NCBI RefSeq assembly: GCF_005930475.1
Contig: NZ_SJEW01000023.1
Location: 1-64,000 of the forward strand
Length of the DNA stretch: 64,000 bases
Origin: Modestobacter altitudinis
Lineage (GTDB): Bacteria > Actinomycetota > Actinomycetes > Mycobacteriales > Geodermatophilaceae
Direction of reading: 5' to 3'
A program made the translations under genes and the position numbers. Shown piece by piece: positions 44,178 to 60,119 of the stretch; within the stretch, counting starts at the first letter, position 1; each line of letters begins with the position of its first letter. The notes under the pieces were generated by a model, which worked only from the letters and a program-made list of their open reading frames with translations, ran no database searches and had not been told where the DNA came from.

Positions 44178-44500
44178 CCGGTCACCGGCCGCGACCGCCG
44201 GGGCGGGGGCTGGGGCCGCGACGTCGTCGAGCTGCACGCCTCCCGAGGTCGCCGCGTCCGGGTCCTCGGCCTCGGCCTGCACCGACGATGACCGTGGTGT
44301 GCCACCCAGGTCCACCCCTCGCCCCTTGCCTGCGCACCCGCCTCCGACGCGGAGAGCCGATCGAGGCACCGCTCACCCGGACGTGCGGCTGGTCCGTCCT
44401 CGATCGGGGAGGTGCGGGCCCGCGCAGCCCGATGACGCGGTGCGGACCACCGTCGGAGGGCGCTCCACGTCCGATCGGGTGGTCTGGACCTGGTCGCCCG
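44178..44500. other. Intergenic region at the left edge of the glycopolymer cluster
   Basis: No coding sequence on either strand has a credible start and composition here. There is a GATCGGGTGG sequence at 44474-44483 that partly resembles the shared motif of this cluster. The rest shows nothing recognisable. The wider gap runs to 44647. Confidence 0.5.
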
Positions 44501-44513
44501 CCCCTTCGGGTGA
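44501..44513 (+). promoter_or_regulatory. GGGTGA-type motif upstream of the WbaP-like gene (site 1)
   Basis: CCCCTTCGGGTGA, one base different from the 13-mer CCCCATCGGGTGA found at the other end of the cluster. It lies 134 bases before the ATG. A clear TANNNT box at the 40-base spacing is not visible here, so the promoter is uncertain. Confidence 0.45.
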
Positions 44514-44647
44514 AGACGCGTTGCCCTGGCAGTCACCGGCGGTGATGGTCACTGTGCGTCGTTCCGGGAAGCCGCCAGCACGTCGGGCAGCCCCACCCCG
44601 GCCGACGCGATGACAGTGAGTCGCCGACCTGGTCCTGGGGGGACACG

Positions 44648-46144
44648 ATGCTGCTCGAACGCGCCGAGGCCGTGTCGGTCATCGATCCCGTCGCGGGTGC
44701 ACTCGGCACCGCGGGGTCGGCCGAACGGGCACGTCCGGCCAGCACGACGCGCGACCGCTGGGCCGGTCGGCACCGCCGCCGGCTGGTCGGCGCCGAGGTC
44801 GTCCTCGCGGCCGCCGCGGCGCTCATCGTGCTCGTCGCCCACGACGGCGTGGTCCCCCCGGCGGGCGGCCTCTTCTGGGCCAGCGTCTCCCTCGTCCTCG
44901 CCTGGCCGGTGCTCCTCGCCGTCACCGGGGCCTACGAGGAGCGCACCTTCGGCATCGGCAGCGACGAGTTCCACCGCATCGGCCGGGCCGGCCTGCTGCT
45001 GCTGGCCGGGATGGGCTTCCTCAGCTACGCCGCCGAGCTCGACCTCAGCCGCGGCCTCGTCGTCGTCGGCGTCCCGGCGCTGGCCCTGGCCACCGTCGTC
45101 GAGCGGTACGTCGCCCGCCACCTGCTGCACTGGCAGCGGCTGCAGGGCCGGTGCGTCAAGCGGGTCGTGGTCGTCGGCCGCGGTGGCGCCGTGCTCGAGC
45201 TGGTGGACCGGCTGGCCCGCACCTCGCACGCCGGGCTGCAGGTCGTCGCCGCCTGCGTGACGCCCGACGACCGGACCCGGGTGGCCCGCGCGGTCGACCT
45301 GCCGGTCTCCGGCCTGGACGACGTGGTCGCCACCGCGGCCCGGATGCAGGCCGACACCATCGCCGTGACCTCGGCCAGCGAGACCGCCGCGCAGTACCTG
45401 CGCGCGCTGTCCTGGCAGCTGGAGGGCACCGGCCTGGAGCTGCTCGTGGCGCCCGGCCTGGTCGAGGTCGCCGGCCCGCGGCTGCACATCCGGCCCTTCG
45501 ACGGCCTGCCGCTGCTGGCGGTCGAGCAGCCCCGGTTCGAGGGGTGGCGCCGGGTGGTCAAGACCGCGCTGGACCGTTCGGTCGCCTTCGGCGCGCTGGT
45601 GGTGCTCGCCCCGTTGTTCGGCGCCCTCGCGCTGGCGGTGCGGCTGTCGAGTCCCGGCGGCGTCTTCTACCGGCAGCAGCGGATCGGCCTCAACGGCGAG
45701 CCGTTCACCATGCTGAAGTTCCGCAGCATGGTCTCCGGTGCCGACCAGCAGGTCGCCGGGCTCTCCGACGGCAACGACGCCGACGGCCTGCTGTTCAAGA
45801 TGCGCTCCGACCCGCGGGTGACCCCGGTCGGTCGCTGGCTGCGCCGGCTGTCCCTGGACGAGCTCCCGCAGCTGGTCAACGTGCTCACCGGCACGATGTC
45901 CCTGGTGGGCCCGCGGCCTCCGCTGCCGCAGGAGGTGGCCCGCTACGACAGCTCGGTGAGCCGCCGGCTGCTGGTGAAGCCGGGGCTGACCGGCCTCTGG
46001 CAGATCTCCGGGCGCAGCGACCTCCCGTGGGAGGAGGCGGTCCGGCTGGACCTGCGGTACGTCGAGAACTGGTCGCTCGCCCTCGACCTGCAGATCCTCT
46101 GGAAGACCGCCCGGGCCGTCGCCACCGCCTCCGGGGCCTACTGA
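44648..46144 (+). CDS. Polyprenyl-phosphate sugar-1-phosphate transferase (WbaP/CpsE type)
   Basis: A 498-residue initiating transferase that puts the first sugar phosphate on undecaprenyl phosphate. Four to five membrane helices (about residues 40-160) precede a CoA-binding-like Rossmann domain (RVVVVGRGGAVLELVDR). The catalytic C-terminal sugar transferase domain (about 300-498) shows FYRQQRIGLNGEPFTMLKFRSM, RVTPVGRWLRRLSLDELPQL and GTMSLVGPRPPLPQEV. The sugar is likely glucose, galactose or similar; not deducible. ATG at 44648 after GGGGGG. First gene of the cluster. Confidence 0.92.
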   Translation: MLLERAEAVSVIDPVAGALGTAGSAERARPASTTRDRWAGRHRRRLVGAEVVLAAAAALIVLVAHDGVVPPAGGLFWASVSLVLAWPVLLAVTGAYEERTFGIGSDEFHRIGRAGLLLLAGMGFLSYAAELDLSRGLVVVGVPALALATVVERYVARHLLHWQRLQGRCVKRVVVVGRGGAVLELVDRLARTSHAGLQVVAACVTPDDRTRVARAVDLPVSGLDDVVATAARMQADTIAVTSASETAAQYLRALSWQLEGTGLELLVAPGLVEVAGPRLHIRPFDGLPLLAVEQPRFEGWRRVVKTALDRSVAFGALVVLAPLFGALALAVRLSSPGGVFYRQQRIGLNGEPFTMLKFRSMVSGADQQVAGLSDGNDADGLLFKMRSDPRVTPVGRWLRRLSLDELPQLVNVLTGTMSLVGPRPPLPQEVARYDSSVSRRLLVKPGLTGLWQISGRSDLPWEEAVRLDLRYVENWSLALDLQILWKTARAVATASGAY

Positions 46145-46326
46145 CCGGTGTCCTCCCTCTGAGTGACGAGGTGTGCTGCCTCGGTGACGATGCGGAGCCG
46201 CGGGGCCGATGGTCTCCCCAGCACACGCCGTGGCCCTGGCCTCGCCGTGCCGTCTCCCGCTCCGGGGGCCGGCCGGTCGACCAGACGCCGGGGACGGACA
46301 CACGGGGGAGAAACGGAGCAGCAGAC

Positions 46327-47640
46327 ATGTCACGGAACACGTCGGGGAGGCTGCGCATCGCGCTGGTCGGCACGCGGGGGGTCCCAGCGCGGTACGGCGG
46401 CTTCGAGACCGCGGTCGAGGAGGTCGGCCGCCGGCTGGTCGACGCCGGCCACGAGGTCGTCGTCTACTGCCGGACGGCAGGCGACCAGCCCCGCCCGGGG
46501 ACGCACCTGGGCATGCAGCTGGTGCACCTGCCCGCCATGCACCGCCGGTCGCTGGAGACGCTGAGCCACACCGGCCTGTCGGTGGCCCACCTGCTGGCCC
46601 ACCGCGTCGACGCCGCCATCGTCTTCAACGCGGCCAACGCGCCGTGGCTGCCGCTGCTGCGCGCGGCCCGCATCCCGGTCGCCACCCACGTCGACGGCCT
46701 GGAGTGGAAGCGCGCCAAGTGGGGCGGCGCCGGGAAGCGCTACTACCGGGTGGTCGAGGCGCTGTCGGTCCGCTGGTCCGACGCGCTCATCGCCGACGCC
46801 CAGGGCATCGCCGACTACTACCGCGACGAGTTCGCCGCCCCGACCGAGCAGATCGCCTACGGCGCGCCCAAGATCGCCGGGGGCGCCTCGGACGCGCTGG
46901 CCGGCGTCGGCCTCACCTCGCGCGGGTACCACCTCGTCGTCGCCCGCTTCGAGCCGGAGAACCACGTCCACGTCATCGTCGACGGCTACCGGCGCAGCGG
47001 GGCCACGCTGCCCCTGGTCGTGGTCGGCTCGGCGCCCTACGCCGACGAGTACACCCGGCAGGTGCACGAGCTGGCCGACGACCGGGTCCGCTTCCTCGGC
47101 GGTGTCTGGGACCAGGAGCTGCTCGACCAGCTCTACGCCCACTGCGCGACCTACCTGCACGGGCACTCCGTCGGCGGCACCAACCCCTCGCTGCTGCGGG
47201 CCATCGGGGCGGGAGCCGCGACGATCGCCTTCGACGTGGCGTTCAACCGCGAGGTCCTGCAGACCAGCGGCCGGTACTTCAGCACCCCCGACGACGTCGC
47301 CGTCGAGGTGACGGCGGCCGAGGCCGACCCCGCGGCGGTCCGCCGGGACGGCAACAGCGCTCGGGTGATGGCCGCCCGGTACGACTGGGACGACGTCGCC
47401 GCCCGGTACGAGGCGCTGTGCGCCCGGCTGGCGGCCAGGGACTTCCCGCGCACCCGGCCCAGCGGACGCCGCCGGGACCAGCTGCCGACCGCCCCGGACG
47501 CACCGACCGGGGCGGCCCCGGCACTGCCCGCGGCTCCCCGCCATCGGCTCGCCGGTCCCGCGCCGGCACCCCTGCGGATGGCGGTCGGGGCTGACGTGCT
47601 CCCGGTCGAGGCGCCGGCGGCCCGGGCGGCGCAGGCGTGA
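46327..47640 (+). CDS. GT4-type glycosyltransferase with DUF1972 (rhamnosyltransferase-like)
   Basis: A 437-residue GT-B enzyme. The N-terminus LRIALVGTRGVPARYGGFETAVEE is the DUF1972 signature found in rhamnosyl- and related transferases. HVDGLEWKRAKWGG and YLHGHSVGGTNPSLLRAIGAGA (donor site) follow. The last ~60 residues are a Pro/Ala-rich tail with no domain. It probably adds an early sugar to the lipid-linked unit. Its stop overlaps the next start (GTGA). The 180 bases after the previous gene show no feature. Confidence 0.88.
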   Translation: MSRNTSGRLRIALVGTRGVPARYGGFETAVEEVGRRLVDAGHEVVVYCRTAGDQPRPGTHLGMQLVHLPAMHRRSLETLSHTGLSVAHLLAHRVDAAIVFNAANAPWLPLLRAARIPVATHVDGLEWKRAKWGGAGKRYYRVVEALSVRWSDALIADAQGIADYYRDEFAAPTEQIAYGAPKIAGGASDALAGVGLTSRGYHLVVARFEPENHVHVIVDGYRRSGATLPLVVVGSAPYADEYTRQVHELADDRVRFLGGVWDQELLDQLYAHCATYLHGHSVGGTNPSLLRAIGAGAATIAFDVAFNREVLQTSGRYFSTPDDVAVEVTAAEADPAAVRRDGNSARVMAARYDWDDVAARYEALCARLAARDFPRTRPSGRRRDQLPTAPDAPTGAAPALPAAPRHRLAGPAPAPLRMAVGADVLPVEAPAARAAQA

Positions 47641-48401
47641 GCGCCGTCCTGGAGACCGTGCCCCGGCCGCGTCCGGCGGAGACCTTCGGGCAGACCCTGG
47701 CCCGGCTCGGGGGTGCCCAGAAGGGCGCCCTCGGCGCGCCTGCCTACTCCCGGTTCGTCAACCGCCGGATGGGCCGGTTCCTGGCGGCCGTGGCCTACCA
47801 CGCCGGCCTCACCCCGAACGCGGTCACCGGCATCAGCGCGGCGTTCTCCGCCACCGGCATCGTCCTGCTCGCGCTCGTCGCGCCGTCCAGGCCGATGGGC
47901 GTGGCGGTCGCCGCCTGCCTGGTCGTCGGTTACGCGCTGGACTCCGCGGACGGCCAGCTGGCGCGGCTGCGCGGCGGCGGCTCGCCGGCCGGTGAGTGGC
48001 TGGACCACATGGTCGACGCGGTGAAGGCCTCGAGCCTGCACCTCGCGGTGCTGATCGGGCTCTACCGCTTCGGCGACCTCGACTCCCGGGCCTGGCTGCT
48101 GGTGCCGCTGGGCTACTGCGTGGTCGACGCCGTCCTCTACTTCGCCACCATGCTCAACGACGCGCTCCGGGCCCAGCACGGGGTGCCCATCCGGTCCCAG
48201 CAGCGGGGGGAGCGGGCCGGCGTCCTCCGGTCGCTGCTCGTGCTGCCCACCGACTACGGCCTGCTGTGCTGCGTGTTCGTGCTCTTCGGTGCACCGGCGC
48301 TGTTCCTGCCGGTCTACACCGTCCTCCTCGTCGCGATGACGGCCTTCCTGGCCCTCGCGTCGGTCAAGTGGTTCCGCGAGATGGGCAGGTTGCCGCGATG
48401 A
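47637..48401 (+). CDS. CDP-alcohol phosphatidyltransferase family protein
   Basis: A 254-residue membrane enzyme. The family motif D-x2-D-G-x2-A-R-x8-G-x3-D-x3-D is complete in LDSADGQLARLRGGGSPAGE and WLDHMVD (about residues 100-125). These enzymes transfer an alcohol phosphate from a CDP-alcohol. In a glycopolymer cluster that also encodes a glycerol-3-phosphate-type cytidylyltransferase (60120), a likely job is adding glycerol phosphate or a related polyol phosphate to the polymer or its lipid (inference). Starts and ends in four-base overlaps with its neighbours. Confidence 0.85.
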   Translation: MSAVLETVPRPRPAETFGQTLARLGGAQKGALGAPAYSRFVNRRMGRFLAAVAYHAGLTPNAVTGISAAFSATGIVLLALVAPSRPMGVAVAACLVVGYALDSADGQLARLRGGGSPAGEWLDHMVDAVKASSLHLAVLIGLYRFGDLDSRAWLLVPLGYCVVDAVLYFATMLNDALRAQHGVPIRSQQRGERAGVLRSLLVLPTDYGLLCCVFVLFGAPALFLPVYTVLLVAMTAFLALASVKWFREMGRLPR

Positions 48402-49072
48402 ACGTCCCCTCCGACACCCCGGCGGCGCGCCCGTCACGGCGATGGGCGGCGCTGGCCGCCGTCCTGGCGGTCGTGGCCGCTGCGCTGGTCGTCCTCGCGC
48501 TCACCACCGGCGGGTCCGGCGACGACCCGGCCGGTGCCGCGGCGTCCTCCGGCTCGGCGACGGCGACGGCGACCCCCGCGGCGCCCTCCGCCGCACCGGC
48601 GCCGGTGGCGCTGGCCCCCGCTGCCGACACCCCCGAGCCGACCGGCCCGACCACCGACGCCGACGAGCCGCCGGTCAGCCTCGACCCGGTGCCCCTCGAC
48701 CAGCCGGCCGCGGTCGGCAACGGCGTCACCGCCGAGGTGGTCTCGCTGGACGCCGTCGACGCCACCGGTGTGGGCCCGGGCAACGTGACCGGCCCGGCGC
48801 TTCGGGTCACCGTCGCGCTGACCAACGGCACGGCCGACGAGCTGTCCCTCGGCGGCGTCGCGGTCGACCTGGCCGCCGGGCCCGAGCTGGTGCCTGCCTC
48901 GCCGGTCAACGACCCCGCGGCGGCCCCCTTCAGCGGCACCGTCCCGGCCGGCGGGACGGCGCGGGGCGTCTACGTCTTCAGCATCGCCGCCGCCGACCGC
49001 GCCGACCTGACGCTCTCGGTCGGGTACGAGGCGGGTGCACCGATCCTCGTCTTCACCGGCGCAGCGTCGTGA
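48398..49072 (+). CDS. Hypothetical exported protein, DUF4352-like fold possible
   Basis: A 224-residue protein with a membrane anchor (ALAAVLAVVAAALVVLALTT, about 17-36), a long Ala/Ser/Thr/Pro linker, and an extracytoplasmic beta-rich domain (VGNGVTAEVVSLDAVDATG; PALRVTVALTNGTADELSLGG; GTARGVYVFSI). The pattern of ligand-free beta strands resembles DUF4352-type domains, but I am not sure. Overlaps both neighbours by four bases, so it belongs to the operon. Function unknown. Confidence 0.75.
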   Translation: MNVPSDTPAARPSRRWAALAAVLAVVAAALVVLALTTGGSGDDPAGAAASSGSATATATPAAPSAAPAPVALAPAADTPEPTGPTTDADEPPVSLDPVPLDQPAAVGNGVTAEVVSLDAVDATGVGPGNVTGPALRVTVALTNGTADELSLGGVAVDLAAGPELVPASPVNDPAAAPFSGTVPAGGTARGVYVFSIAAADRADLTLSVGYEAGAPILVFTGAAS

Positions 49073-50295
49073 CCGCGCCGGGATCGCGCCCCCGCGTCCT
49101 GGTGGTCCACCCCGGCGCCGAGCTCTACGGCGCCGACCGGGTGCTGGCCGAGTCGGCGTCGGCGCTGGCCACCCGGTTCGACGTCACCGTCGCGCTGCCC
49201 GGTCCCGGGCCGCTGGTCGCCGAGCTGGAGGCCCGCGGGCTGCGGGTCGTGCTGTGCCGGATGCCGGTGCTGCGCAACTCCGCGCTCCGCCCCCGGGGCG
49301 CAGTGCGGCTGCTGGCCGACACGGTGCTCGGCGCGCTGCCCGCACTGCGCCTGCTGCGCTCGGCCGGCCAGGCCGGGGTCTACGTCAACACGCTCACGCT
49401 GCCCTCCTGGCCGCTGCTCGCCCGGCTGGCCGGACGGCGTTCGGTCTGCCACGTCCACGAGGCCGAGCAGTCCGCGCCGCGGCTGCTGCGGATCGGCATG
49501 GCCGTCTGCCCGGCGCTGGCCGACCGCGTGGTCGCCAACAGCCGGTTCTGCCTGGACGTGCTCACCGAGACGGCCCCGTGGCTGCGCCGCCGCGCGACCG
49601 TCGTCCACAACGCCGTCTCCGCACCCGCCGAGGTCCAGCCGCCCCGCGCGGCGCTGGACGGGCCCGTGCGGCTGCTGTTCGTCGGCCGGCTGTCCCCGCG
49701 CAAGGGACCGCAGGTGGCCGTGGCCACGCTGCAGGAGCTGCTGGCCCGGGGCGTCGACGCCCGGCTGCAGCTGCTCGGTTCGGTGTTCGAGGGCTACGAG
49801 TGGTTCGAGACCGAGCTGCGCGCCACGGTGGCCGCCGCCGGGCTCGATGACCGGGTCGAGTTCCTCGGCTTCCGGTCCGACGTCTGGCCGGTGCTGGCCG
49901 GCAGCGACGTCGTGCTCGTGCCGTCGGTGATGGAGGAGTCCTTCGGGCTCACCGCCGTCGAGGCCGTGCTCGCCGCCCGGCCGCTCGTGGTGAGCGACAG
50001 CAGCGGCCTGCGGGAGGCCGCCGCGGGCTACGCCGGCGCCCAGTCCGTCACCCCGGGCGACCCCGCGCTGTGGGCGGACGCCGTCCAGCGCGTCGTCACC
50101 GGCTGGACCGCCGCCCGGGCGGTCGCCGCCGACGACGCCGCCGAGGCCCGCCGCCGGCACGCGCCGCAGCGCTACGCCGAGCAGCTGGTGGCCGTCCTGG
50201 ACACGCTCGCCGGTGTGCACCCGACCGCTCCTGCCGTCCCGGCACCTCGCCGTCCGGTCGAGGCTCCGGCCACGGTGTCCAGAGCGGCCCGATGA
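49069..50295 (+). CDS. Glycosyltransferase family 4 protein
   Basis: A 408-residue GT-B transferase. VLVVHPGAELYGADRVLAES is the N-terminal acceptor domain start; RLLFVGRLSPRKGPQVAV and LVPSVMEESFGLTAVEAVLAARPLVVSD (E-x7-E type donor site) are typical of GT4. It adds a sugar from a nucleotide donor to the growing repeat unit. GTG start overlaps the previous stop, and its own stop overlaps the next ATG. Confidence 0.9.
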   Translation: MTAPGSRPRVLVVHPGAELYGADRVLAESASALATRFDVTVALPGPGPLVAELEARGLRVVLCRMPVLRNSALRPRGAVRLLADTVLGALPALRLLRSAGQAGVYVNTLTLPSWPLLARLAGRRSVCHVHEAEQSAPRLLRIGMAVCPALADRVVANSRFCLDVLTETAPWLRRRATVVHNAVSAPAEVQPPRAALDGPVRLLFVGRLSPRKGPQVAVATLQELLARGVDARLQLLGSVFEGYEWFETELRATVAAAGLDDRVEFLGFRSDVWPVLAGSDVVLVPSVMEESFGLTAVEAVLAARPLVVSDSSGLREAAAGYAGAQSVTPGDPALWADAVQRVVTGWTAARAVAADDAAEARRRHAPQRYAEQLVAVLDTLAGVHPTAPAVPAPRRPVEAPATVSRAAR

Positions 50296-51026: not shown

Positions 51027-51039
51027 CCTGGTCGCCCAC

Positions 51040-51069
51040 GGCCCGCTCACCCCTCGGGAGGAGCGGGCC
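51040..51069 (+). terminator. Hairpin after the deacetylase gene
   Basis: GGCCCGCTC (51040-51048) pairs with GAGCGGGCC (51061-51069). It closes the five-gene overlapping run from 46327. Confidence 0.7.
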
Positions 51070-51107
51070 CGGCGCGTGTCCCGACGGCGTCTGCAGGCGG
51101 CCCGTAG

Positions 51108-51218
51108 GGGTGACGTTCGGTTACTCCGACCGGGTGACGGTCGGCGCTGAGCTGCGGTTTCGTACCGCATCGGGTGACGCGTTCACCCTGGTCGGGTACG
51201 GACAGTCACGCTTAGTGT
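51108..51218 (+). promoter_or_regulatory. GGGTGA-type motif cluster and -10 box before the large surface protein (site 2)
   Basis: GGGTGACG occurs at 51108, 51132 and 51172. The third copy is in CCGCATCGGGTGA (51165-51177), one base from the cluster 13-mer, and forms GGGTGA-N5-TCACCC (51172-51188), a 6-5-6 dyad. TAGTGT at 51213-51218 is a plausible -10, with 35 bases between it and the motif. The context CGCTTAG around the -10 is repeated before the cytidylyltransferase gene. Confidence 0.55.
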
Positions 51219-51275
51219 TCATCGACTGCGCTGGCCCCGACCGGGTGCCAGGGGGGACGACGAACGGACACGAGC

Positions 51276-54200
51276 ATGAGGGCAAGGACGGCGACCATCG
51301 CCGCACGGACCACCGCGGGTGTGGTGGGACTGGCGCTGGCGATCGGCGTGCTGGGCGCAGCGGCACCGGCGGCACGCGCCGACTCCGCGCCGGTGGACCC
51401 CACCAGCAGCGCGACCCCGAGCACGGTCACCGCGGACGCGCTGCCCACCGTGCAGATCAACGGTGTGGCCTGGGCCCAGGTCGTGGTGGGCAACACCGTC
51501 TACGTCGCCGGCAAGTTCACCTCCGCCCGGCCGGCCGGCGCCGCCGCCGGGACGCAGGAGACCGTCCGCAACAACATGCTCGCGTACGACGTCCGCACCG
51601 GTGCGCTGATCACCTCCTTCGCGCCGGACCTGAACGCCCAGGCGCTGGCCGTCGCGGCCTCGCCCGACGGCAGCCGGGTCTACGTGGCCGGGGACTTCAC
51701 CACGGCCAACGGCCAGACCCGCAAGCGCGTCGCGGCCTACGACACCGCCACCGGCCAGCTCGTCGCCGACTTCAAGCCGAGCGTGACCGGCCAGGTCCGG
51801 GCGCTCGCGGTCACCGGTTCCGCGGTCTACCTGGGCGGCAGCATCAGCGCCGTCGGCTCGACCAGCCGCACGTCGCTGGCTGCCGTCTCGCCGTCCGGTG
51901 CCCTGCTCCCGTGGGCGCCGGTCGCCGGCGCCGCAGCGACCGGCGGCAGCAATGAGGTCCTCGCCCTGGTGGCCACCAACGGCGGCGCGCAGGTCGTGGC
52001 CTCGGGCCGGTTCGCCAGCCTCAACGGCGTCGCGGCCACCGGTGTCGGCGCGCTGGACGCGGCCAGCGGCGCGACGAGGCCGTTCGCGGTCAACAAGATC
52101 GTCACCAACCAGGGGACGAACTCCGCCATCTGGAACCTGTCCACCGACGGGACGACGGTCTTCGGCAGCGGCTACGACTACTCCGGTCCGGGCAACCTCG
52201 AAGGGACCTTCGCCGCGAAGGCCGACGGCGGCTCGCTCGTCTCGGTGGCCTACTGCCGCGGCGACAACTACTCCAGCTACGCCACCGGTGGCGTGGTCTA
52301 CATCGCCTCCCACATGCACGACTGCTCCTACGTCGGTGGCTACGCCGACATCGGGCAGTACAAGCGGGCGACCGCCTTCACCGTGGCCGCCACCCGCACG
52401 GTCACCGGGAACACCTTCCGGAACACCAACTGGAAGGGCCAGCCCGCCAGCTCGCTGCTCGACTGGTTCCCGACCATCCCGGCCGGCACCTACACCGGGC
52501 AGAACCAGGGCTCCTGGAGCGTCGCCGGCAACGGCCAGTACGTCGTCTACGGCGGCGAGTTCCCCTCGGTGAACGGCGCCAAGCAGCAGGGCCTGGTCCG
52601 CTTCGCCACCACCGCGATCGCCCCGAACAAGATCGGCCCGGACGCCGCGCTGCTCAAGCCCACGGCGACCGCCGTCGGTGCCGGCGCGGTGCGGGTCGCC
52701 TGGACGGCCACCGCCGACCAGGACAACGAGAACCTGACCTACCGCGTCTACCGCGACGGTGCGACCACCCCGTTCTACGAGACCACGCAGGCCTCCACCT
52801 GGTGGAACACCCCGGCCATGGCGGTCGGTGACACCGGCCTGTCCGCCGGCACGCACACCTACCGGCTGACGGTCACCGACCCGACCGGGAACGTCGCCAA
52901 GCCCGCGGTGGTCTCCGTCGCCCTCGCCACCGGCGGTGCGGCCCGGCCCTACGCCGACGTCGTCCGGGCCGACGGCGCGACCGACCTCTGGTCGCTGGGG
53001 GAGACCTCGGGCACGACCGCCTTCGACCTCGAGGGCCCGACCGACATGACCACCGGCACCGCGGTCACCCGCGGCGCCGCCGGCGCCCTGACCGGTGACG
53101 CCGACACCGCCTACACCCTGTCCAACAGCACGTCGTCCTTCGCGTCGACGCGCACCGCGGTGCCCGGCCCGCAGACCTTCTCGGTCGAGGCCTGGTTCAA
53201 GACGACCTCCACGACCGGCGGCCGCATCCTCGGCTTCGGCAGCGCCTCGACCGGGTCGAGCGGCTCCTACGACCGGATGGCGTACCTGGACGGCAACGGC
53301 CGGGTGGTCTTCGGCGTCTACGACGGCACGACGAAGACCGTCACCAGCCCCACCGCCTACAACGACGGCCGCTGGCACCAGGTCACCGGCACGCTGAGCT
53401 CCAGCGGTCTGGTCCTGTACGTCGACGGCAAGCAGGTCGCCGCCCGCACCGACGCCGTCTCCGCCGAGGCGTTCACCGGCTACTGGCGGATCGGGTACGA
53501 CAACGTCTGGGCCGGGTCCACCACCTTCACCGGCTCGATCGACGAGGTCGCTGTCTACCCGACCGCGCTGACCGCGGCCCAGGTCGCCAGCCACGTCGCC
53601 GTCGCCACCACGGGCTCCGCCCGCAACCAGGCGCCGAACGCTGCGTTCACCTCGACCGCGACCTTCCTCGACGCCGGCTTCGACGCCCGCGGCTCCAGCG
53701 ACACCGACGGCACCGTCGCCGGCTACGCCTGGGACTTCGGCGACGGCGCCACCGGCACCGGCCCGACCGCGACGCACGGCTACCGGACCGCCGGCACCTT
53801 CGCGGTGACGCTCACCGTGACCGACGACGACGGCGCCACGGCGAGGAAGACCGCGTCGGTCACGGTCGTCGCACCGCCGGCCAACGTCGCGCCGACCGCC
53901 GCCTTCACCGCGGTGTCCGGCGGCGCCACCGGGTCGTTCGACGCCACGGCATCCGCCGACACCGACGGCACGATCACCGGGTACCGCTGGGCCTTCGGCG
54001 ACGGAGCCACCGGCACCGGGGTCACCGCGTCGCACGACTACGCCCAGGACGGCACCTACCCCGTCACCCTGACGGTCACCGACGACGACGGCGCGACCAC
54101 CAGCACCACGCAGCAGGTCACCATCGTGGCCACCGTGCTGGCGGCCGACCGCTTCGGTCGGACGGTGACCGGCGGGCTGGGCACGGCCGACACCGGCGGT

Positions 54201-55775
54201 GCCTGGACCTCCGCAGCGGGTGCTGCCCGCCAGTCGGTGGCCGCGGGCACGGCGACGTTCGCCCTGACCAAGGGCACCAACACCGGCTCCTACCTGGGCA
54301 CGGTGTCGGCCACCAGCTCCGACGTGCAGGCCGCGTTCTCGCTGGCCTCGGTGCCGACCGGCGGTGGCGCGTTCGTCTACGTCACCGCTCGCCAGGTCGC
54401 GCTGAACACCTCCTACTCCGCGCAGGTCCGGGTGCTGGCCGACGGCTCGGTCGGGGTGTCCCTGGTCCGCTTCGCCGGCACCACCGACGCCGTGCTCATC
54501 GGCAAGGAGGTCGTCGTGAAGGGCCTGGCCTACACCGCCGGCACCGTGCTCCGGGTCGACGTCCAGGCCGCCGGCACCGCGCCGACCAGCCTCTCGGCCA
54601 CGGTCTGGGCGGACGGCACGACCCGGCCGACCACTGCGACGGTCACCGCCACGGACACCACCGCGGTGCTGCAGGCGCCCGGTGCGGTGGGTCTGCTCGG
54701 GTACCTCTCCGGCAGTGCGACCAGGCCGGTCGCCGTCCGGCTGACCTCGTTCGACGCCGTCCCGGTCGGCGGCACGCCGGCTCCCACGGCGCCGACCGCC
54801 CCGACGACGCCGACCACCCCGACCGTCCCCGTGCCGCCGGTGACCCCGGCGAACACGGCCCCGACGGCCGCCTTCACCGCCGCCACGGACGCCCTGTCGG
54901 TCACCGTCGACGGCTCGGGCTCCACGGACGCCGACGGCGCCGTGGCCGCCCACGCCTGGGACTTCGGTGACCAGGGCACCGGCACCGGCGCCACCGCGTC
55001 GCACACCTACGCCGCCGCCGGCAGCTACACCGTGACGCTGACGGTGACCGACGACGACGGCGCCACCGCCCGCACCCAGCGGACGGTGACCGTCACCGCC
55101 CCGGTCACCCCGGTCACCCCGGCCGAGCCGGCGGAGGTCATCGCCGCCGACGCCTTCGACCGGACCGTCGCCGGTGGTCTGGGCACGGCGCAGGACGGGA
55201 GCAGCTGGACCGCCAGCGCCGGCGCCGCGCGGCAGTCGGTGTCGGCAGGCACCGCGACGTTCGCGCTGACCAAGGGCACCAACACCGGGTCCTACCTCAG
55301 CGGGGTCGCGGAGAGCAGCGTGGACGTGCAGACGGCGCTCTCGCTGTCCGCCGTGCCGACCGGCGGCGGGGCCACGGTCTACGTGGGTGCCCGCCGGGTG
55401 GACACCAACGTGGCCTACCAGGGCCGGGTGCGCTTCCTCGCCGACGGCACGGTGGGCGTCGCGCTGGTCAAGCAGGCCGGTACCAGCGACGACGTGCTCA
55501 TCGGCAAGGAGGTCGTGCTCAAGGGCCTGACCTACACGCCCGGCACCGTGCTCAACGTGCGGGTCATCGCCACGGGCACCGGCGCCACGCAGCTGTCGGC
55601 GACGGTGTGGGCGGCCGGCACGACCGAGCCGACCACGCCGACGGTGACCGGGGCCGACACGACCGCCACCCTCCAGGCGGCGGGCTCGGTCGGGCTGACC
55701 GCCTACCTGTCGGGCAGCGCCACCTCGTCGGTGGACGTGCGGTTCAGCGAGATCACCGTCACGCCGGTCGCGTGA
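51276..55775 (+). CDS. 1499-residue secreted multidomain protein: beta-propeller, FN3-like, LamG, three PKD and duplicated module
   Basis: A signal peptide (to about residue 36) is followed by a beta-propeller with delta-60-type repeats (SRVYVAGDFTTANGQTRKR) to about 460, an FN3-like segment (TYRVYRDGATTPFYETTQ), a LamG/concanavalin-like domain (about 565-785: FSVEAWFKTTSTTGGRILGF, WHQVTGTLSSSG), PKD domains at about 790-955 (DFGDGATGTG, AFGDGATGTG) and 1195-1285. Two copies of a ~210-residue module follow: about 955-1165 and 1288-1498. No LPXTG or C-terminal helix. Probably an extracellular matrix or adhesion protein made with the polysaccharide. ATG 51276. Confidence 0.88.
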   Translation: MRARTATIAARTTAGVVGLALAIGVLGAAAPAARADSAPVDPTSSATPSTVTADALPTVQINGVAWAQVVVGNTVYVAGKFTSARPAGAAAGTQETVRNNMLAYDVRTGALITSFAPDLNAQALAVAASPDGSRVYVAGDFTTANGQTRKRVAAYDTATGQLVADFKPSVTGQVRALAVTGSAVYLGGSISAVGSTSRTSLAAVSPSGALLPWAPVAGAAATGGSNEVLALVATNGGAQVVASGRFASLNGVAATGVGALDAASGATRPFAVNKIVTNQGTNSAIWNLSTDGTTVFGSGYDYSGPGNLEGTFAAKADGGSLVSVAYCRGDNYSSYATGGVVYIASHMHDCSYVGGYADIGQYKRATAFTVAATRTVTGNTFRNTNWKGQPASSLLDWFPTIPAGTYTGQNQGSWSVAGNGQYVVYGGEFPSVNGAKQQGLVRFATTAIAPNKIGPDAALLKPTATAVGAGAVRVAWTATADQDNENLTYRVYRDGATTPFYETTQASTWWNTPAMAVGDTGLSAGTHTYRLTVTDPTGNVAKPAVVSVALATGGAARPYADVVRADGATDLWSLGETSGTTAFDLEGPTDMTTGTAVTRGAAGALTGDADTAYTLSNSTSSFASTRTAVPGPQTFSVEAWFKTTSTTGGRILGFGSASTGSSGSYDRMAYLDGNGRVVFGVYDGTTKTVTSPTAYNDGRWHQVTGTLSSSGLVLYVDGKQVAARTDAVSAEAFTGYWRIGYDNVWAGSTTFTGSIDEVAVYPTALTAAQVASHVAVATTGSARNQAPNAAFTSTATFLDAGFDARGSSDTDGTVAGYAWDFGDGATGTGPTATHGYRTAGTFAVTLTVTDDDGATARKTASVTVVAPPANVAPTAAFTAVSGGATGSFDATASADTDGTITGYRWAFGDGATGTGVTASHDYAQDGTYPVTLTVTDDDGATTSTTQQVTIVATVLAADRFGRTVTGGLGTADTGGAWTSAAGAARQSVAAGTATFALTKGTNTGSYLGTVSATSSDVQAAFSLASVPTGGGAFVYVTARQVALNTSYSAQVRVLADGSVGVSLVRFAGTTDAVLIGKEVVVKGLAYTAGTVLRVDVQAAGTAPTSLSATVWADGTTRPTTATVTATDTTAVLQAPGAVGLLGYLSGSATRPVAVRLTSFDAVPVGGTPAPTAPTAPTTPTTPTVPVPPVTPANTAPTAAFTAATDALSVTVDGSGSTDADGAVAAHAWDFGDQGTGTGATASHTYAAAGSYTVTLTVTDDDGATARTQRTVTVTAPVTPVTPAEPAEVIAADAFDRTVAGGLGTAQDGSSWTASAGAARQSVSAGTATFALTKGTNTGSYLSGVAESSVDVQTALSLSAVPTGGGATVYVGARRVDTNVAYQGRVRFLADGTVGVALVKQAGTSDDVLIGKEVVLKGLTYTPGTVLNVRVIATGTGATQLSATVWAAGTTEPTTPTVTGADTTATLQAAGSVGLTAYLSGSATSSVDVRFSEITVTPVA
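54140..55772 (+). repeat. Intragenic duplication of a ~630-bp module
   Basis: Copy 1 runs about 54140-54770 and copy 2 about 55138-55772. Both start with (A)AD-x-F-x-RTV-x-GGLGTA, share TATFALTKGTNTGSYL, then PTGGGA-x-VYV and VLIGKEVV-x-KGL-x-YT. The DNA is clearly similar, pointing to a recent tandem duplication with one PKD domain between. Confidence 0.8.
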
Positions 55776-55780
55776 GCCGA

Positions 55781-55811
55781 CCGCGGGGCCGCGCCGGACG
55801 CGGCCCCGCGG
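55781..55811 (+). terminator. 13-bp hairpin after the large surface protein
   Basis: CCGCGGGGCCGCG pairs with CGCGGCCCCGCGG around CCGGA, 5 bases past the stop. Confidence 0.75.
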
Positions 55812-55813
55812 GA

Positions 55814-55858
55814 CCCCATTTCGGGTGACGCCCGGTGTCGCAGCAGCGGCACCGGGCG
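55814..55858 (+). promoter_or_regulatory. GGGTGA-type motif (site 3) and hairpin before the flippase gene
   Basis: CCCCATTTCGGGTGA (55814-55828) equals the cluster 13-mer with two extra T. It is followed at once by CGCCCGGTG (55829-55837), which pairs with CACCGGGCG (55850-55858). No TANNNT box is obvious before the GTG at 55881. Confidence 0.4.
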
Positions 55859-55880
55859 TTCGCGCGGGGAGGATCAGCAC

Positions 55881-57137
55881 GTGACCGGAGTGGTGCGCCT
55901 GCTGCGGCGTCCGGCCACCGGCGCCCTCGCCGGCCAGGTGACGTCCGCCCTGGCCGGCTTCGTGCTGCAGGTCGCCGCGGCCCGGGCGCTGGGCGTCGCA
56001 GGCCTGGCCACCTTCTCCCTCGCCTACGGCGCGATCGTGCTGGCCACCGCCGTGTGCAGCGGCCTGGTCGGCGACTCGCTCACCGTCCTGGACCGCCACG
56101 AACCGCGGGTCCGGGCCGGGCTGCACGTGAGCACGGCGCTGGTCTCCGGCGTCGCCGGGCTGGCCGGCTGCGTGCTGGGCGTGGCCACCGGCGTCCTCCC
56201 GGCCTGGGCCGGGCTGTTGCTCGGTGCCGCGACGGCGGCCTTCGTGCTCGAGGACACCCTGCGCCGGCTGCTGATGGCCGCCGGCCGGTTCTGGTCGTTG
56301 CCCGCCGTCGACGTCACCAGCCTGGTCGTGGCCCTCGGGACCCTGCTGGTCGCCGCCCGCGCCGGGGGGCTGGAGCTCTCGTCGTTCGTCGTCGCCCTGC
56401 TGGCGGGGCAGACCGCTGCCGCCGTCGTCGCCTGGGTGCTGCTGCCCGCGGCCGAGCGGCCGCGGGGTCCGTGGCGGGACCCGGCGCTGGGCACGGTGTT
56501 CGCCTTCGGCAGCTGGCGTGCTGCCGCACAGACGGTCCGGCCGGCGCTGCTGACGGTGCTGCGGCTGCTCGTCGTCGCCGTCGCCGGCGCGGCCGCCTAC
56601 GGCCCGCTCGAGGCCGCGCGGGTCTACACCGCGCCGACCCTGGTGCTCGTCGCCGGCCTGGGCACCTTCCTGCTGCCGCACTTCGTCTCGCTGCGCCCGC
56701 AGGGGCCGGCCGCCGGGCTGCGGGCCGCCGACCGGGCCGCGGCGGGTCTGGCCCTCGCCGTCGGCGTCGTCGGCCTGCTCGCCGTCCTGGCGCTGCCCTG
56801 GGCGGGTCCGCTGCTCACCGGCGGCGACTACCCGGTGCCGGCCGAGGCGGTGGCCGGCTGGTCGGTCTACGCCGTCGCCAGCGCCGTCCTGCTGCCCTAC
56901 TCGGGGCTCGCGTCGGTGCACGGGGCGCAGCGCCGGGTGCTGGTGCTGCGTGCCTTCGAGTTCGCCTCGCTGGCCGCGGTCGCGCTGCTGCTGGCCGTCG
57001 ACGGCGGGGTGCCGTGGACGCCGCTGGCGCTGACGCTCGGGCCGGTGCTGGCCGCCGTGGCCGTCCGGCGCTCGGTGCTGCTGCCGATGGCGCGCAGCAC
57101 GGCCGGGTCGGTCGTCCGTGAGCCGGCCGTCGCGTGA
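55881..57137 (+). CDS. Wzx-like polysaccharide flippase
   Basis: A 418-residue membrane protein with 12-14 predicted helices of the MOP/oligosaccharide-exporter type. The start GALAGQVTSALAGFVLQVAAARALGVAG corresponds to the family's ALGPEGFG region, and FAFGSWRAAAQTVRPALLTVL to the middle helices. It should flip the lipid-linked repeat unit to the outer face. GTG at 55881 follows GGGGAGG. Its stop overlaps the next GTG (GTGA). Confidence 0.82.
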   Translation: MTGVVRLLRRPATGALAGQVTSALAGFVLQVAAARALGVAGLATFSLAYGAIVLATAVCSGLVGDSLTVLDRHEPRVRAGLHVSTALVSGVAGLAGCVLGVATGVLPAWAGLLLGAATAAFVLEDTLRRLLMAAGRFWSLPAVDVTSLVVALGTLLVAARAGGLELSSFVVALLAGQTAAAVVAWVLLPAAERPRGPWRDPALGTVFAFGSWRAAAQTVRPALLTVLRLLVVAVAGAAAYGPLEAARVYTAPTLVLVAGLGTFLLPHFVSLRPQGPAAGLRAADRAAAGLALAVGVVGLLAVLALPWAGPLLTGGDYPVPAEAVAGWSVYAVASAVLLPYSGLASVHGAQRRVLVLRAFEFASLAAVALLLAVDGGVPWTPLALTLGPVLAAVAVRRSVLLPMARSTAGSVVREPAVA

Positions 57138-58363
57138 CCGCGGCACCGGTCGTCGCCACCGGCCGCCCGGCCGGCCGGCGGAGCAGCCCGTGGGTCCTCC
57201 AGCTGGCGACGCTGCTCATGGTGCTCGGGGCGGTCGACTGGCGCCGCGGTGCCTACTTCGCCGGCTCGGTGGACCCGGTCGTGCTCAGCAAGGCACTGGT
57301 CGCCGGGCTCGGACTGCTGCTGGCCTTCGGGCTGGCCTCCGCCCGGCGCAGCCACCGGCTGGGCACGCTGTCGGTGTGGTGGCTGGCGATCGTGCTGGGC
57401 AGCTCCGTCTGGGGTGCGCTGACCGCGGGGAAGCTGCTCGGGGGCGGGGTGATGGCCGTCCGGGTGGCCGTGCTGGGCGCCACCGTGTTCTTCCTGCTCC
57501 GGGCGGCACCCTCGCTGGAGGTGCTGCGCCGGACGGCCTGGGCGTGCGGTGCCATCGCCGTGCTCGCCTCGCTGACCGGCCTGCCCGAGATGACCGACGG
57601 CCGGCTGGCCGGCGGTCTGCCGGCGATGGACCCCAACGCGCTGGCGTTGCTGGCCGGCATCCCGCTGGTCCTCCTGGCCTGGCGGACGGTGCTCGGTGAG
57701 GCGAGCTGGGCGATCGCGGTCGGGGGTTGCTACTTCCTCGCCGTGCTGTGGCTCACCGGGTCGCGCACGGCCCTGCTCATGCTGCTGGTCGGCGTCGCCG
57801 CGATGGCGGTGCAGGTCCGCCGGCCCCGGGTCGGCCTGGTCGTCGGTGCGCTGGTGCTCGGTGCGCTCGGCACGATCGGCGCTGTCGCCACCGGTGTGCT
57901 CTCCGGCTTCGCGGAGCGCGGTGGGGACGGCACCAGCACCCTGGGCTCACGCTTCATCGCCTGGCGGGCCGCCCTGACCTGGGCCGACTCCACCTGGCAG
58001 ACCGTCTTCGGCGGCGGCCTCAACATCAAGATCATCCCCGTGACGGGTCAGTACTGGAAGACCCAGCCGTTGGACAGCAGCTGGGCGTCGCTGCTGGTGC
58101 AGACCGGCGTCCTCGGCCTGCTGGTCGCCGCCGGTTGGGTGTGCTGGGTGGCCCGCGGCGCGCTGCGCGCCCCGTACCCGCACCGGGTCCTCTTCGTCGG
58201 GCTCTGGGTCTTCCTGGTGGGTCGCAGCCTGCTGGAGAGCGGGTTGTTCGACGCCAGCCCGGCCTTCCTGGTCTTCCTCTCCGTGTCGCTGCTGGCCGAG
58301 GGCGCCTCCCGCCAGCGGCTGCGGGACGAGCTCGCCGACGGTTCCCCCGCACCCCAGCGCTGA
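57134..58363 (+). CDS. O-antigen ligase / Wzy-like polymerase
   Basis: A 409-residue polytopic protein with ten or more helices and a large extracytoplasmic loop (about residues 265-315) containing TLGSRFIAWRAALTWADSTW and the Gly-rich FGGGLNIK, as in Wzy_C/O-antigen ligase proteins. MDPNALALLAGIPLVLL is the typical (D/P)N motif helix. It would polymerise the repeat units or attach the polymer. Coupled to the flippase by a four-base overlap. Confidence 0.85.
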   Translation: MTAAPVVATGRPAGRRSSPWVLQLATLLMVLGAVDWRRGAYFAGSVDPVVLSKALVAGLGLLLAFGLASARRSHRLGTLSVWWLAIVLGSSVWGALTAGKLLGGGVMAVRVAVLGATVFFLLRAAPSLEVLRRTAWACGAIAVLASLTGLPEMTDGRLAGGLPAMDPNALALLAGIPLVLLAWRTVLGEASWAIAVGGCYFLAVLWLTGSRTALLMLLVGVAAMAVQVRRPRVGLVVGALVLGALGTIGAVATGVLSGFAERGGDGTSTLGSRFIAWRAALTWADSTWQTVFGGGLNIKIIPVTGQYWKTQPLDSSWASLLVQTGVLGLLVAAGWVCWVARGALRAPYPHRVLFVGLWVFLVGRSLLESGLFDASPAFLVFLSVSLLAEGASRQRLRDELADGSPAPQR

Positions 58364-58387
58364 CCCGTCGGCGTCCGGCCGCGAACG

Positions 58388-58448
58388 GGCACAGGGAACT
58401 CTGCTCCCGGTCCGGAGCGCTGGACCGGGGTGCAGAGCGCCCTGTGCC
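58388..58448. repeat. 61-bp imperfect palindromic element
   Basis: GGCACAGGG (58388-58396) pairs with CCCTGTGCC (58440-58448); inner CTGC/GCAG and CCGGTCC/GGACCGG also pair. It lies just past the ligase gene and differs in sequence from the 27764/28746 family. Confidence 0.6.
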
Positions 58449-58512
58449 TGAGCCGGCTGCGCGGGTCGCGCACCGTCGCCGGGCCCTGTCCCGCACCCCC
58501 TCCCGGACGCAG

Positions 58513-58548
58513 CACAGCCCGGACGGTCAGCGGACCGTCCGGGCTGTG
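58513..58548. terminator. 16-bp hairpin between convergent ligase and Wzz genes
   Basis: CACAGCCCGGACGGTC and GACCGTCCGGGCTGTG with tetraloop AGCG. It can terminate transcription from both sides. Confidence 0.8.
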
Positions 58549-58564
58549 GTGGGGGAGCGGTGGG

Positions 58565-59773
58565 TCAGGGGCGCGAGGTCGGGAGCGGGTCCCGCGGTGC
58601 CGGCGTCCGCGCGCGGAGCAGCTGGGCCGGCATGCTCACCGGAACCGGCTGGGGAGCGGACTGCGGGACCGTCGCGGCTCGACCGGACCGACGCCGCGAG
58701 GCGGACTGCAGCACCACCGAGAGGACCCGGACGCCGGCGGCGTCCAGGATCGAGCGCAGCTCGTGCAGGTCGGCGCGGTCGGTCCGGCCGGGTTCGACGA
58801 CGAGGACGACGCCGGCGTGGTCCTGGGTGGTCCGCCGCCACTCGCGCAGCGAGGCCAGCGGCTGACCGACCCAGAACTGGACGCCCACCCGCCCGGGGGC
58901 GTCGGCGAGCGGCGACGGAGCGGAGCCGAGCACCTCGACCGGCACCTCCCACGCGGTCAGCTCCGCGGCGACCTGGTCGACGACCGTGGCGGCAGCGGCC
59001 GGGTCGTCGTCGGCGGGGGAGAGCGCGACCACCCGGACCAGCTGCTGCTCGGCCATCGGCTCGAGCTGCCGGGCGAGCGAGGTGGTGGGCCGGAGCGCCC
59101 GGAGCGCCCGGCCGGCCGGCGCGGCGTGCACGACCAGCTGCTCGGCGCCGGCGCCCCAGGCGGCCCGGACGTCGTCCACGCCGTGCACCCGGGTGTCCAG
59201 CCGGCTGCGGACGACGGCGGCCGCGGCACCGAGCGCCAGGCCGACGACGAGCCCCAGCGGCAGCAGCAGCGCCGGCAGCGGGGCGACCGGGGAGGTCGGC
59301 ACGGTCGCCGGGTTGGTGACGGTCAGGCTGACCGGGGAGGCGCCGTCCCCGGGCTGCTCCAGCTCCTCCACCGCGGTCCCGAAGCGCTCGGCGACGGCGT
59401 TGGCGATCTGCGCGGCCCGGTCGGCGTCGTGGTCGGTGACGGCGATCTCGATCTGCGAGGTGTCCGCCGGGTTGGTCGCGCTGACCTGCTTGCGGAGGTC
59501 GGAGAAGGAGTCGGACAACCCCAGCTCGTCCATCACCGGGGCGAGGACGGTCCGGCTGTCCGCCACCGGCGGGTAGCTGGTCACCCGCTGGTTCACGAAC
59601 TGCGAGCCACTGGTGCTGTCGTCGACGCTGGCGACGAAGACCTGGGCCGTCGCCTCGTAGGTCGGCGGGGCGACCAGCACGATGCCGAGCGCGACCAGCA
59701 GACCGGCCAGGGCCACCCCCAGCCACGTCGTCCAGTACCGGCGCAGGGCCACCCCGTAGTCCTGCAGTTCCAT
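58565..59773 (-). CDS. Wzz-type chain-length protein with degenerate kinase-like half
   Basis: A 402-residue protein. Residues about 1-215 are a Wzz domain: MELQDYGVALRRYWTTWLGV, first helix, TYEATAQVFVAS, a periplasmic coiled segment, and a second helix (PLPALLLPLGLVVGLALGAA). The next ~150 residues (QLVRVVALSPADDDPAAAAT; VVLVVEPGRTDRADLHELRSILDAAGVRVLSVVL) have the alternation of a BY-kinase/ParA-type P-loop domain but no Gly-Lys-Thr Walker A, so they cannot bind ATP in the usual way. It sets polymer length. ATG 59773 after AGGGAGA. Confidence 0.82.
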   Translation of the reverse strand: MELQDYGVALRRYWTTWLGVALAGLLVALGIVLVAPPTYEATAQVFVASVDDSTSGSQFVNQRVTSYPPVADSRTVLAPVMDELGLSDSFSDLRKQVSATNPADTSQIEIAVTDHDADRAAQIANAVAERFGTAVEELEQPGDGASPVSLTVTNPATVPTSPVAPLPALLLPLGLVVGLALGAAAAVVRSRLDTRVHGVDDVRAAWGAGAEQLVVHAAPAGRALRALRPTTSLARQLEPMAEQQLVRVVALSPADDDPAAAATVVDQVAAELTAWEVPVEVLGSAPSPLADAPGRVGVQFWVGQPLASLREWRRTTQDHAGVVLVVEPGRTDRADLHELRSILDAAGVRVLSVVLQSASRRRSGRAATVPQSAPQPVPVSMPAQLLRARTPAPRDPLPTSRP

Positions 59774-59854
59774 GTCGCCGTCTCCCTGTCCACACCTGTC
59801 GGGCACGAGGCGGCACGCGGGCGCAGCGCCCGCGCGTCCTGGTCCTCTACGTGG

Positions 59855-60040
59855 AGGCTAGGGCCCTGACCAGGCCGGATGCGGGTCCCGACCGGGTGGC
59901 TCACCCGATGGGGAGGGGCCGGTGCCGCCCGCTCGCGGTACCGGTCGGGGCCGTTGCCCACCGATCAGGTCGTGCGTCCCGCCCCATCGGGTGAACGTGC
60001 CCGCTCTGGCTCACGCTCGGTCACCGGATCCGCTTAGCGT
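59855..60040. promoter_or_regulatory. Divergent promoter region with inverted CCCCATCGGGTGA pair (sites 4 and 5)
   Basis: The exact 13-mer CCCCATCGGGTGA is at 59982-59994 (plus) and at 59901-59913 (minus). Facing left, -10 box TAGCCT (plus positions 59855-59860) is 40 bases from its motif; facing right, TAGCGT (60035-60040) is also exactly 40 bases from its motif. The left site also forms CGGGTG-GCT-CACCCG. The arrangement suggests one activator for both the Wzz gene and the cytidylyltransferase gene. The 346-base gap holds no gene. Confidence 0.65.
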
Positions 60041-60119
60041 GGCCCTGCGAGTCCGGCCGGACGGCGATGTCCGCCCGGTCCAGTCACGGAGCGTGTCGGT
60101 CAGTCGAGGAGAGTGCACG

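What the first reader, a model, noticed from the sequence alone, without database searches (positions are those of the whole stretch)
44501..60040. A shared 13-bp motif may define one regulon over the glycopolymer cluster
The sequence CCCCATCGGGTGA is present exactly at 59982 (plus) and 59901 (minus), and with one change at 44501 and 51165; a looser form is at 55814. All five lie in gaps before genes of this cluster. At the two exact sites the distance to a TANNNT -10 box is 40 bases on both strands; at 51165 it is 35. The contexts CATCGGGTGA and CGCTTAG are shared by the 51276 and 60120 promoters. By composition the 10-mer CATCGGGTGA would be expected about 0.1 times in this window on both strands, but I found it three times. 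This fits an activator site; I do not know a regulator with this motif.
Basis: partly seen in the sequence, partly recalled or inferred. Interest (0 to 1): 0.72.

Follow-up and report, generated by a model that had tools for sequence, protein, structure and literature searches.

The report
BldM/BldD-type promoters on envelope cluster
The repeated motif closely matches the known DNA site of the developmental regulator BldM and, at the best-conserved promoter, sits at a nearly fixed distance from a box for the c-di-GMP sensor BldD, suggesting that this soil bacterium and its relatives make a cell-surface polymer under regulators known from Streptomyces sporulation.

Summary
In detail: the five places exist, the -10 distances (40, 40, 35) are right, and CATCGGGTGA occurs 3 times against 0.09-0.14 expected. 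The window is Modestobacter (Geodermatophilaceae). A strict form, CCSNWTCGGGTGA, has 8 places in the 5.2 Mb genome (reversed control 0), four of them in this cluster. The motif equals the conserved half of published BldM sites (Group I TCACcCgnncGgGTGA; Group II TGnnCCGnnCGGGTGA). A likely BldM orthologue is present (best HTH match; synteny in relatives). Before the tagD-like gene (60120) the motif is followed by a BldD box (TNACN5GTNA) and a TANNNT -10: GGGTGA-N11-17-box in 23 of 47 Geodermatophilaceae loci, 0 in 30 shuffles, 0 of 17 Streptomyces. Only five BldD boxes lie in the 64 kb window; three are in this cluster's promoter gaps. A BldD orthologue with the c-di-GMP signature is present. 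Related sites lie beside an NlpC/P60 hydrolase, a GT2-HAD glycosyltransferase, ctaD and bldM genes. Most likely BldM activates and BldD-c-di-GMP represses the cluster; binding, sign and signal are inferred. Conservation is incomplete, the 51165 site is weakly conserved, and the fifth site (55816) sits between two strong hairpins.

The parts
59982..59994 (+). BldM-type half-site, CCCCATCGGGTGA, of the tagD-like promoter
60011..60023 (+). BldD box TCACGCTCGGTCA over the presumed -35 region
   Evidence: consensus TNACN5GTNA from PMC4151990 passages
60035..60040 (+). presumed -10 box TAGCGT, 11 bases after the BldD box
   Evidence: no transcript data
60120..60605 (+). TagD-like cytidylyltransferase gene
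59901..59913 (-). BldM-type half-site of the divergent gene 58527-59816; presumed -10 TAGCCT at 59860-59855
   Evidence: a like site precedes the orthologue in L061, L062, L063
58527..59816 (-). divergent gene of unknown function (429 aa open frame)
   Evidence: no Pfam match
59887..59899 (+). weaker half-site CCCGACCGGGTGG
44501..44513 (+). BldM-type half-site CCCCTTCGGGTGA before the sugar-phosphate transferase gene
   Evidence: CCCCWTCGGGTGA in 5 of 5 regions examined
44467..44482 (+). weaker half-site ACGTCCGATCGGGTGG
44533..44545 (+). BldD box TCACCGGCGGTGA
44648..46144 (+). sugar-phosphate transferase gene (Bac_transf)
51111..51123 (+). BldD box TGACGTTCGGTTA, overlapping the 51122 half-site by two bases
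   Evidence: a box in 10 of 13 PKD-gene regions
51122..51137 (+). TACTCCGACCGGGTGA, one mismatch from the Group II consensus TGnnCCGnnCGGGTGA
51165..51177 (+). BldM-type half-site CCGCATCGGGTGA before the PKD gene
   Evidence: at its place in 3 of 13 regions; like site in L290
51213..51218 (+). presumed -10 box TAGTGT
   Evidence: TTAGTGT at this place in 6 of 13 regions
51233..51248 (+). weaker half-site GGCCCCGACCGGGTGC
51276..55775 (+). 1499-aa PKD/laminin-G protein gene
55816..55828 (+). CCATTTCGGGTGA between two strong hairpins; probably not a promoter element

Best explanation
The 13-mer is the binding half-site of BldM, an orphan NarL/FixJ-type response regulator. In Geodermatophilaceae, promoters of a variable envelope-glycopolymer cluster carry such a site together with a BldD box. 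At the tagD-like promoter the order is CCC[GC]NTCGGGTGA (about -60), about 15 bases, BldD box over the -35 region, about 11 bases, TANNNT. BldM, perhaps with a partner on the degenerate left half, recruits polymerase; BldD dimerised by c-di-GMP would cover the -35 region and shut the promoter while c-di-GMP is high. Shown here: motif, conservation, spacing, presence of both regulator genes and of the c-di-GMP signature. Inferred: binding, sign of regulation, c-di-GMP response, timing.
For: Published BldM sites share CGGGTGA. Full Group I palindromes occur in own and in 17 of 19 other Modestobacter genomes, reversed control 0 in all 33 genomes searched, and lie upstream of bldM in 4 of 5 regions read. 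BldM orthologue P0004: WhiB-like neighbour, IMP dehydrogenase gene near its relatives and the Streptomyces match, best HTH match of the Streptomyces protein by 132 against 80 bits. Composite in 23 of 47 tagD promoters, 0 in 30 shuffles, 2 in the other 876 kb; gap 15 in 15 of 29 pairs. Three of the window's five BldD boxes lie in the cluster gaps. BldD orthologue with RHD-X8-RAED (signature).
Against: No binding or expression data. In full length the Streptomyces protein ranks P0004 only third among the own regulators compared (111 bits; L221 131, L201 116-115). The left half fits neither Group I (TCA missing) nor the TG of Group II. WhiI was not identified. Conservation is incomplete: GGGTGA in 34 of 47, CGGGTGA in 23 of 47 tagD promoters; in the closest relative (L061) the 51165 site is missing. 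The divergent promoter (59901) has no BldD box. Some palindromes elsewhere look like terminators (L257, L261). Streptomyces tagD genes lack the composite (0 of 17).
Confidence: 0.68

Rival explanations
1. Another NarL/FixJ-type regulator with the same half-site (for example the atypical pair L204/L205, or L221) binds the motif, alone or as a heterodimer with BldM.
For: The own genome has 40 LuxR-type HTH matches; L204/L205 are near-identical to each other, lack typical receiver residues and are conserved in the family (79-80% identity in two relatives); the left half-site is degenerate.
Against: The Streptomyces BldM HTH matches P0004 far better than L221 or L204/L205 (132 against 80, 76 and 75 bits), and palindromic sites stand before bldM itself.
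Confidence: 0.18
2. The second element is bound by MtrA or another GTNAC-type regulator and not by BldD.
For: MtrA sites are also built of TRAC/GTKAC-like repeats (PMC5650626 passages).
Against: The published MtrA consensus leaves six bases between AC and GT; the conserved element leaves five, as the BldD box does. It is near-palindromic.
Confidence: 0.08
3. The words are parts of transcription terminators or other RNA hairpins.
For: 55816 lies between two strong hairpins (z -6.2); some TCACCC-N4-GGGTGA palindromes elsewhere have extended arms and look like terminators (L257, L261).
Against: The 59982 and 44501 regions fold no better than shuffles (z -0.2 and 0.5) and 51165 only slightly better (z -1.8); the near-fixed distance to a -10 and the BldD box is not a terminator feature.
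Confidence: 0.05
4. PhoP site: the reverse complement of GGGTGAAC resembles the GTTCACC unit of the PHO box (recalled).
For: A or C often follows GGGTGA in tagD promoters (A in 17 of 25).
Against: A PHO box is a direct repeat (recalled); I saw no second unit in the sites that I read by eye. Not tested by a call.
Confidence: 0.04

Closest known systems
BldM Group I and Group II (BldM-WhiI) promoters of Streptomyces venezuelae (PMC4125116, passages)
   Same: CGGGTGA half-site with CC[CG] before it; a BldM orthologue in the genome; full palindromes elsewhere in the genome
   Different: Left half matches neither TCAC (Group I) nor TG (Group II); the target is an envelope-glycopolymer cluster; the site is phased with a BldD box; no WhiI identified
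BldD regulon and BldD box (PMC4151990, passages)
   Same: 13-bp box TNACN5GTNA, and a BldD orthologue with RXD-X8-RXXD
   Different: Target is an envelope cluster in a non-Streptomyces actinobacterium; the box lies about 15 bases after a BldM-type site at the tagD-like promoter

Membership tests
BldM target promoter | right half-site CGGGTGA | tested here: met
   Exact at 44501, 51165, 59901, 59982 and 55816
BldM target promoter, Group I | palindrome TCACcCgnncGgGTGA | tested here: not met
   The cluster sites lack the left TCA. Full palindromes exist elsewhere, one at 31580 in the window
BldM-WhiI target promoter, Group II | TGnnCCGnnCGGGTGA | tested here: inconclusive
   CCG/CCC and CGGGTGA fit, TG does not; nearest is 51122 with one mismatch
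BldM | orthologue in the genome by synteny and HTH | tested here: met
   that the Streptomyces gene beside the IMP dehydrogenase gene is bldM is recalled
BldM | reciprocal best match in full length | tested here: not met
   P0004 ranks third with the Streptomyces protein as query
WhiI | orthologue as heterodimer partner | tested here: inconclusive
   L204/L205 are atypical, but their best Streptomyces match is only 33% identical and not singled out
BldM target promoter | in vivo or in vitro binding and BldM-dependent transcription | not testable with these tools
   needs EMSA, ChIP, RNA-seq
BldD target promoter | BldD box TNAC(N)5GTNA | tested here: met
   44533, 51111, 60011 in the window; 36 of 47 tagD promoters
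BldD | orthologue with XRE-type HTH, BldD C-terminal domain and RXD-X8-RXXD | tested here: met
   PF21179 and HTH matches, RHD-X8-RAED
BldD target promoter | c-di-GMP-dependent binding and repression | not testable with these tools
   needs EMSA with c-di-GMP or ChIP

The most novel reading that the evidence does not exclude
In Geodermatophilaceae the Streptomyces sporulation regulators BldM and BldD form a c-di-GMP-gated switch on a stereotyped composite promoter that stays in place while the glycopolymer genes beside it are exchanged between species; the circuit would control cell-surface identity in bacteria without aerial hyphae and may be close to its ancestral use.
Probability: 0.4. Interest if true: 0.68.

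Novelty: new variant of a known kind. Interest (0 to 1): 0.52.

Why it matters
It proposes a name for the unknown regulator and turns a sequence curiosity into a testable circuit: c-di-GMP to BldD, BldM, and an envelope polymer. It suggests a role for BldM and BldD outside sporulating Streptomyces that my full-text searches did not find for this family (open-access library only). It may bear on how these rock- and desert-dwelling actinobacteria switch cell form (recalled background, not tested).

Tried and rejected
Loose counts at 3 mismatches gave no signal. The composite CGGGTGA-N24-48-YTAGNNT in the own genome gave 9 places (reversed control 3), 3 of them in this cluster; of the other six, genes were called around five and the gene behind the site was scanned for four: two histidine kinases, a thiazole kinase and one without a match, so it is not a good regulon finder. 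CCGGGTGA-type places were dropped as mostly coding (18 of 22). L204/L205 as WhiI could not be shown. PhoP was considered from memory only. A search for Geodermatophilaceae life-cycle papers and a BldM/glycopolymer search listed nothing to the point; both listings were capped, so they prove no absence.

Rows left out before counts: of 80 loci, 47 were counted as Geodermatophilaceae (two metagenome bins labelled Nocardioides and Frankiales were kept with them), 17 as Streptomyces, 12 as Cellulomonadaceae, and 4 left out (L145, L167, L178, L197). The 47 are related, so they are not 47 independent events. In one search, 2 of 7 transferase rows and 6 of 19 PKD rows were skipped because the gene start was not covered. 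In some searches the own LuxR set came from 30 of the 40 HTH places; of these 30, L226 had no gene called at its centre and L215's centre was the neighbouring kinase. One search covered a chosen set of 21 loci. Coding and non-coding calls rest on my own codon-usage score trained on window genes, not on an annotation; some fetched loci hold masked stretches, which that score counts as non-coding.
Full report
WHAT IS THERE. The window belongs to a Modestobacter (Geodermatophilaceae): its TagD-like protein is 96% identical to that of M. excelsi, and the other best named matches are mostly Modestobacter, Blastococcus and Geodermatophilus. Between a peptidyl-tRNA hydrolase gene (43590) and a Mfd-type helicase gene (60672 on; TRCF, CarD-like and UvrB-interaction domains) lies a glycopolymer cluster: a sugar-phosphate transferase, two glycosyltransferases, a CDP-alcohol phosphatidyltransferase, a polysaccharide deacetylase, a 1499-aa PKD/laminin-G protein, an open frame without a Pfam match (55881), a Wzy-like protein, a divergent gene of unknown function and a TagD-like cytidylyltransferase. 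In 19 relatives fetched, gene content upstream of the TagD-like gene varies strongly.

THE OBSERVATION. CATCGGGTGA is found 3 times, expected 0.09-0.14. At 3 mismatches there is no excess.

BEYOND CHANCE. Upstream of the TagD-like gene the motif recurs in the genus and family. In 47 Geodermatophilaceae loci GGGTGA is present on the coding strand in 34 (shuffle mean 6.9) and CGGGTGA in 23 (shuffle mean 2.6). So conservation is strong but incomplete. Over the cluster regions of 20 genomes TCGGGTGA is the most enriched 8-mer in non-coding DNA, masked letters apart (30 in about 45 kb non-coding, 7 in about 335 kb coding). In the own genome CCSNWTCGGGTGA has 8 places (7 distinct, one palindrome being counted twice), reversed control 0, four of them in this cluster. 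That word was shaped on the window, so other genomes are the cleaner test: 145 places in 19 other Modestobacter genomes against 5 in the reversed control, palindromes counted twice. Of 22 places from that search (one each from 22 genomes, 18 of them Modestobacter) 19 are non-coding. In an own-genome list of 30 places, T-type places are non-coding in 7 of 8 (two of these are one palindrome), C-type in 4 of 22, with a background of 20%.

WHAT BINDS IT. Passages of Al-Bassam et al. 2014 (PMC4125116) give BldM Group I sites as TCACcCgnncGgGTGA and Group II (BldM-WhiI heterodimer) sites as TGnnCCGnnCGGGTGA. The window motif is the shared right half with CCC or CCG before it. Group I palindromes (pattern TCACCCSNNSGGGTGA) occur in the own genome (5) and in 17 of 19 other Modestobacter genomes; the reversed control is 0 in all 33 genomes searched. 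One stands upstream of bldM in 4 of 5 regions read: own, Klenkia, Blastococcus (seen by eye in the printed sequence) and one more Modestobacter, but not Geodermatophilus nigrescens. The own BldM candidate P0004 (G000:C84) has a GerE HTH and a weakly matching receiver and lies beside a WhiB-like gene. Its relatives lie near a WhiB-like gene and, in Geodermatophilus (Pfam) and Blastococcus (by its first residues), within about 1 kb of an IMP dehydrogenase gene. The Streptomyces best match lies beside an ECF-type sigma gene and an IMP dehydrogenase gene. That this Streptomyces gene is bldM rests on recall of the locus. Its HTH matches P0004 far better than any other own HTH compared (132 against 80 bits). 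In full length P0004 ranks only third (111 bits; L221 131), which I attribute to its diverged receiver.

THE SECOND ELEMENT. Aligning the promoters showed a second conserved word that fits the BldD box 5'-TNAC(N)5GTNA-3' (PMC4151990, passages). In the 47 tagD promoters a box is present in 36 (shuffle mean 1.4, maximum 4) and the stricter TNACNCWGNGTNA in 19 (mean 0.0, maximum 1). GGGTGA-N11-17-box occurs in 23 (0 in 30 shuffles; 2 in the other 876 kb), and with TANNNT behind it in 19. The gap is 15 bases in 15 of 29 pairs, and in 11 of these 29 it is 15 with TANNNT 11 further on. Streptomyces: 0 of 17 composites. Cellulomonadaceae: GGGTGA in 7 of 12 on each strand, box in 0 of 12. The whole window has five boxes; three lie in the gaps before 44648, 51276 and 60120. 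The sugar-phosphate-transferase promoter has both elements in 5 of 5 regions examined. The PKD promoter has a box in 10 of 13, but the 51165-type site at its place in only 3 of 13 (not in the closest relative, L061). The genome encodes one BldD-like protein (PF21179, 125 bits) with RHD-X8-RAED, which fits the c-di-GMP signature RXD-X8-RXXD.

HOW IT PROBABLY WORKS. A site centred near -60 suits an activator, and BldM is one in Streptomyces. A box over the -35 region suits a repressor, and BldD with c-di-GMP is one in Streptomyces. The reading is: high c-di-GMP, BldD on, cluster off; low c-di-GMP with BldM present, cluster on. Position and conservation are shown; binding, sign and signal are inferred. 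The left half-site (CCC[GC]) could be a weak BldM half or a partner's half; WhiI could not be identified.

WIDER REGULON. Related sites lie close to the start of an NlpC/P60 hydrolase gene in four Modestobacter genomes (by Pfam in L286 and L297; by sequence likeness in L118/L293 and L119), of a GT2-HAD glycosyltransferase gene in two (own L251, where the site points away from the gene, and L298), of a cytochrome oxidase subunit I gene in two (L011, L283), and of a PKD-protein relative in L290. Other sites lie beside genes that I did not follow. So the cluster is a main but not the only target.

WEAK POINTS. 55816 lies between two hairpins (z -6.2) and has no promoter-like box before the next start. 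Some palindromes elsewhere are terminator-like (L257, L261). The 47 loci are related to each other. No expression or binding data were available.

IN PRINT. Full-text searches: Modestobacter with BldD, no paper; BldM with Geodermatophil-, one, the genome survey PMC4255298, of which I read passages. The MtrA consensus is from passages of PMC5650626. PMC13102240 was read in passages and added nothing decisive. Other papers were seen only as search listings. The library is open-access only.

Noticed in passing
31580-31595: A full Group I-type palindrome TCACCCCCCGGGGTGA directly after an amino-acid permease gene and before a 218-aa gene and a further gene (32372); palindromes of the same kind stand beside the corresponding genes in L255, L256 and L258 and after a permease relative in L260. 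It could be a BldM site or a terminator hairpin.
   Followed up: partly
L204 and L205 (own genome C161, C96): Two near-identical atypical NarL-type regulators; the family is conserved in Geodermatophilus and Blastococcus (79-80%) without a clear Streptomyces counterpart.
   Followed up: partly
window 43590-60605 and L061-L079: The glycopolymer cluster behaves like an exchangeable cassette: gene content varies among relatives while the TagD-like gene and its promoter stay.
   Followed up: partly
L061-L079, non-coding parts: Other non-coding words are enriched too: CCAGGTTAG (12 non-coding, 0 coding) and GAGTGACC (16 non-coding, 5 coding); not explained.
   Followed up: no
L163, L170, L175-L177, L179, L182, L183, L187, L196, L198, L199: Cellulomonadaceae tagD-like genes also have GGGTGA words upstream (7 of 12 on each strand) but no BldD box (0 of 12).
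   Followed up: no
L008 (own genome C55:42313): CCACATCGGGTGA stands about 165 bases before a 66-aa cold-shock-like open frame and upstream of a chaperonin gene.
   Followed up: no
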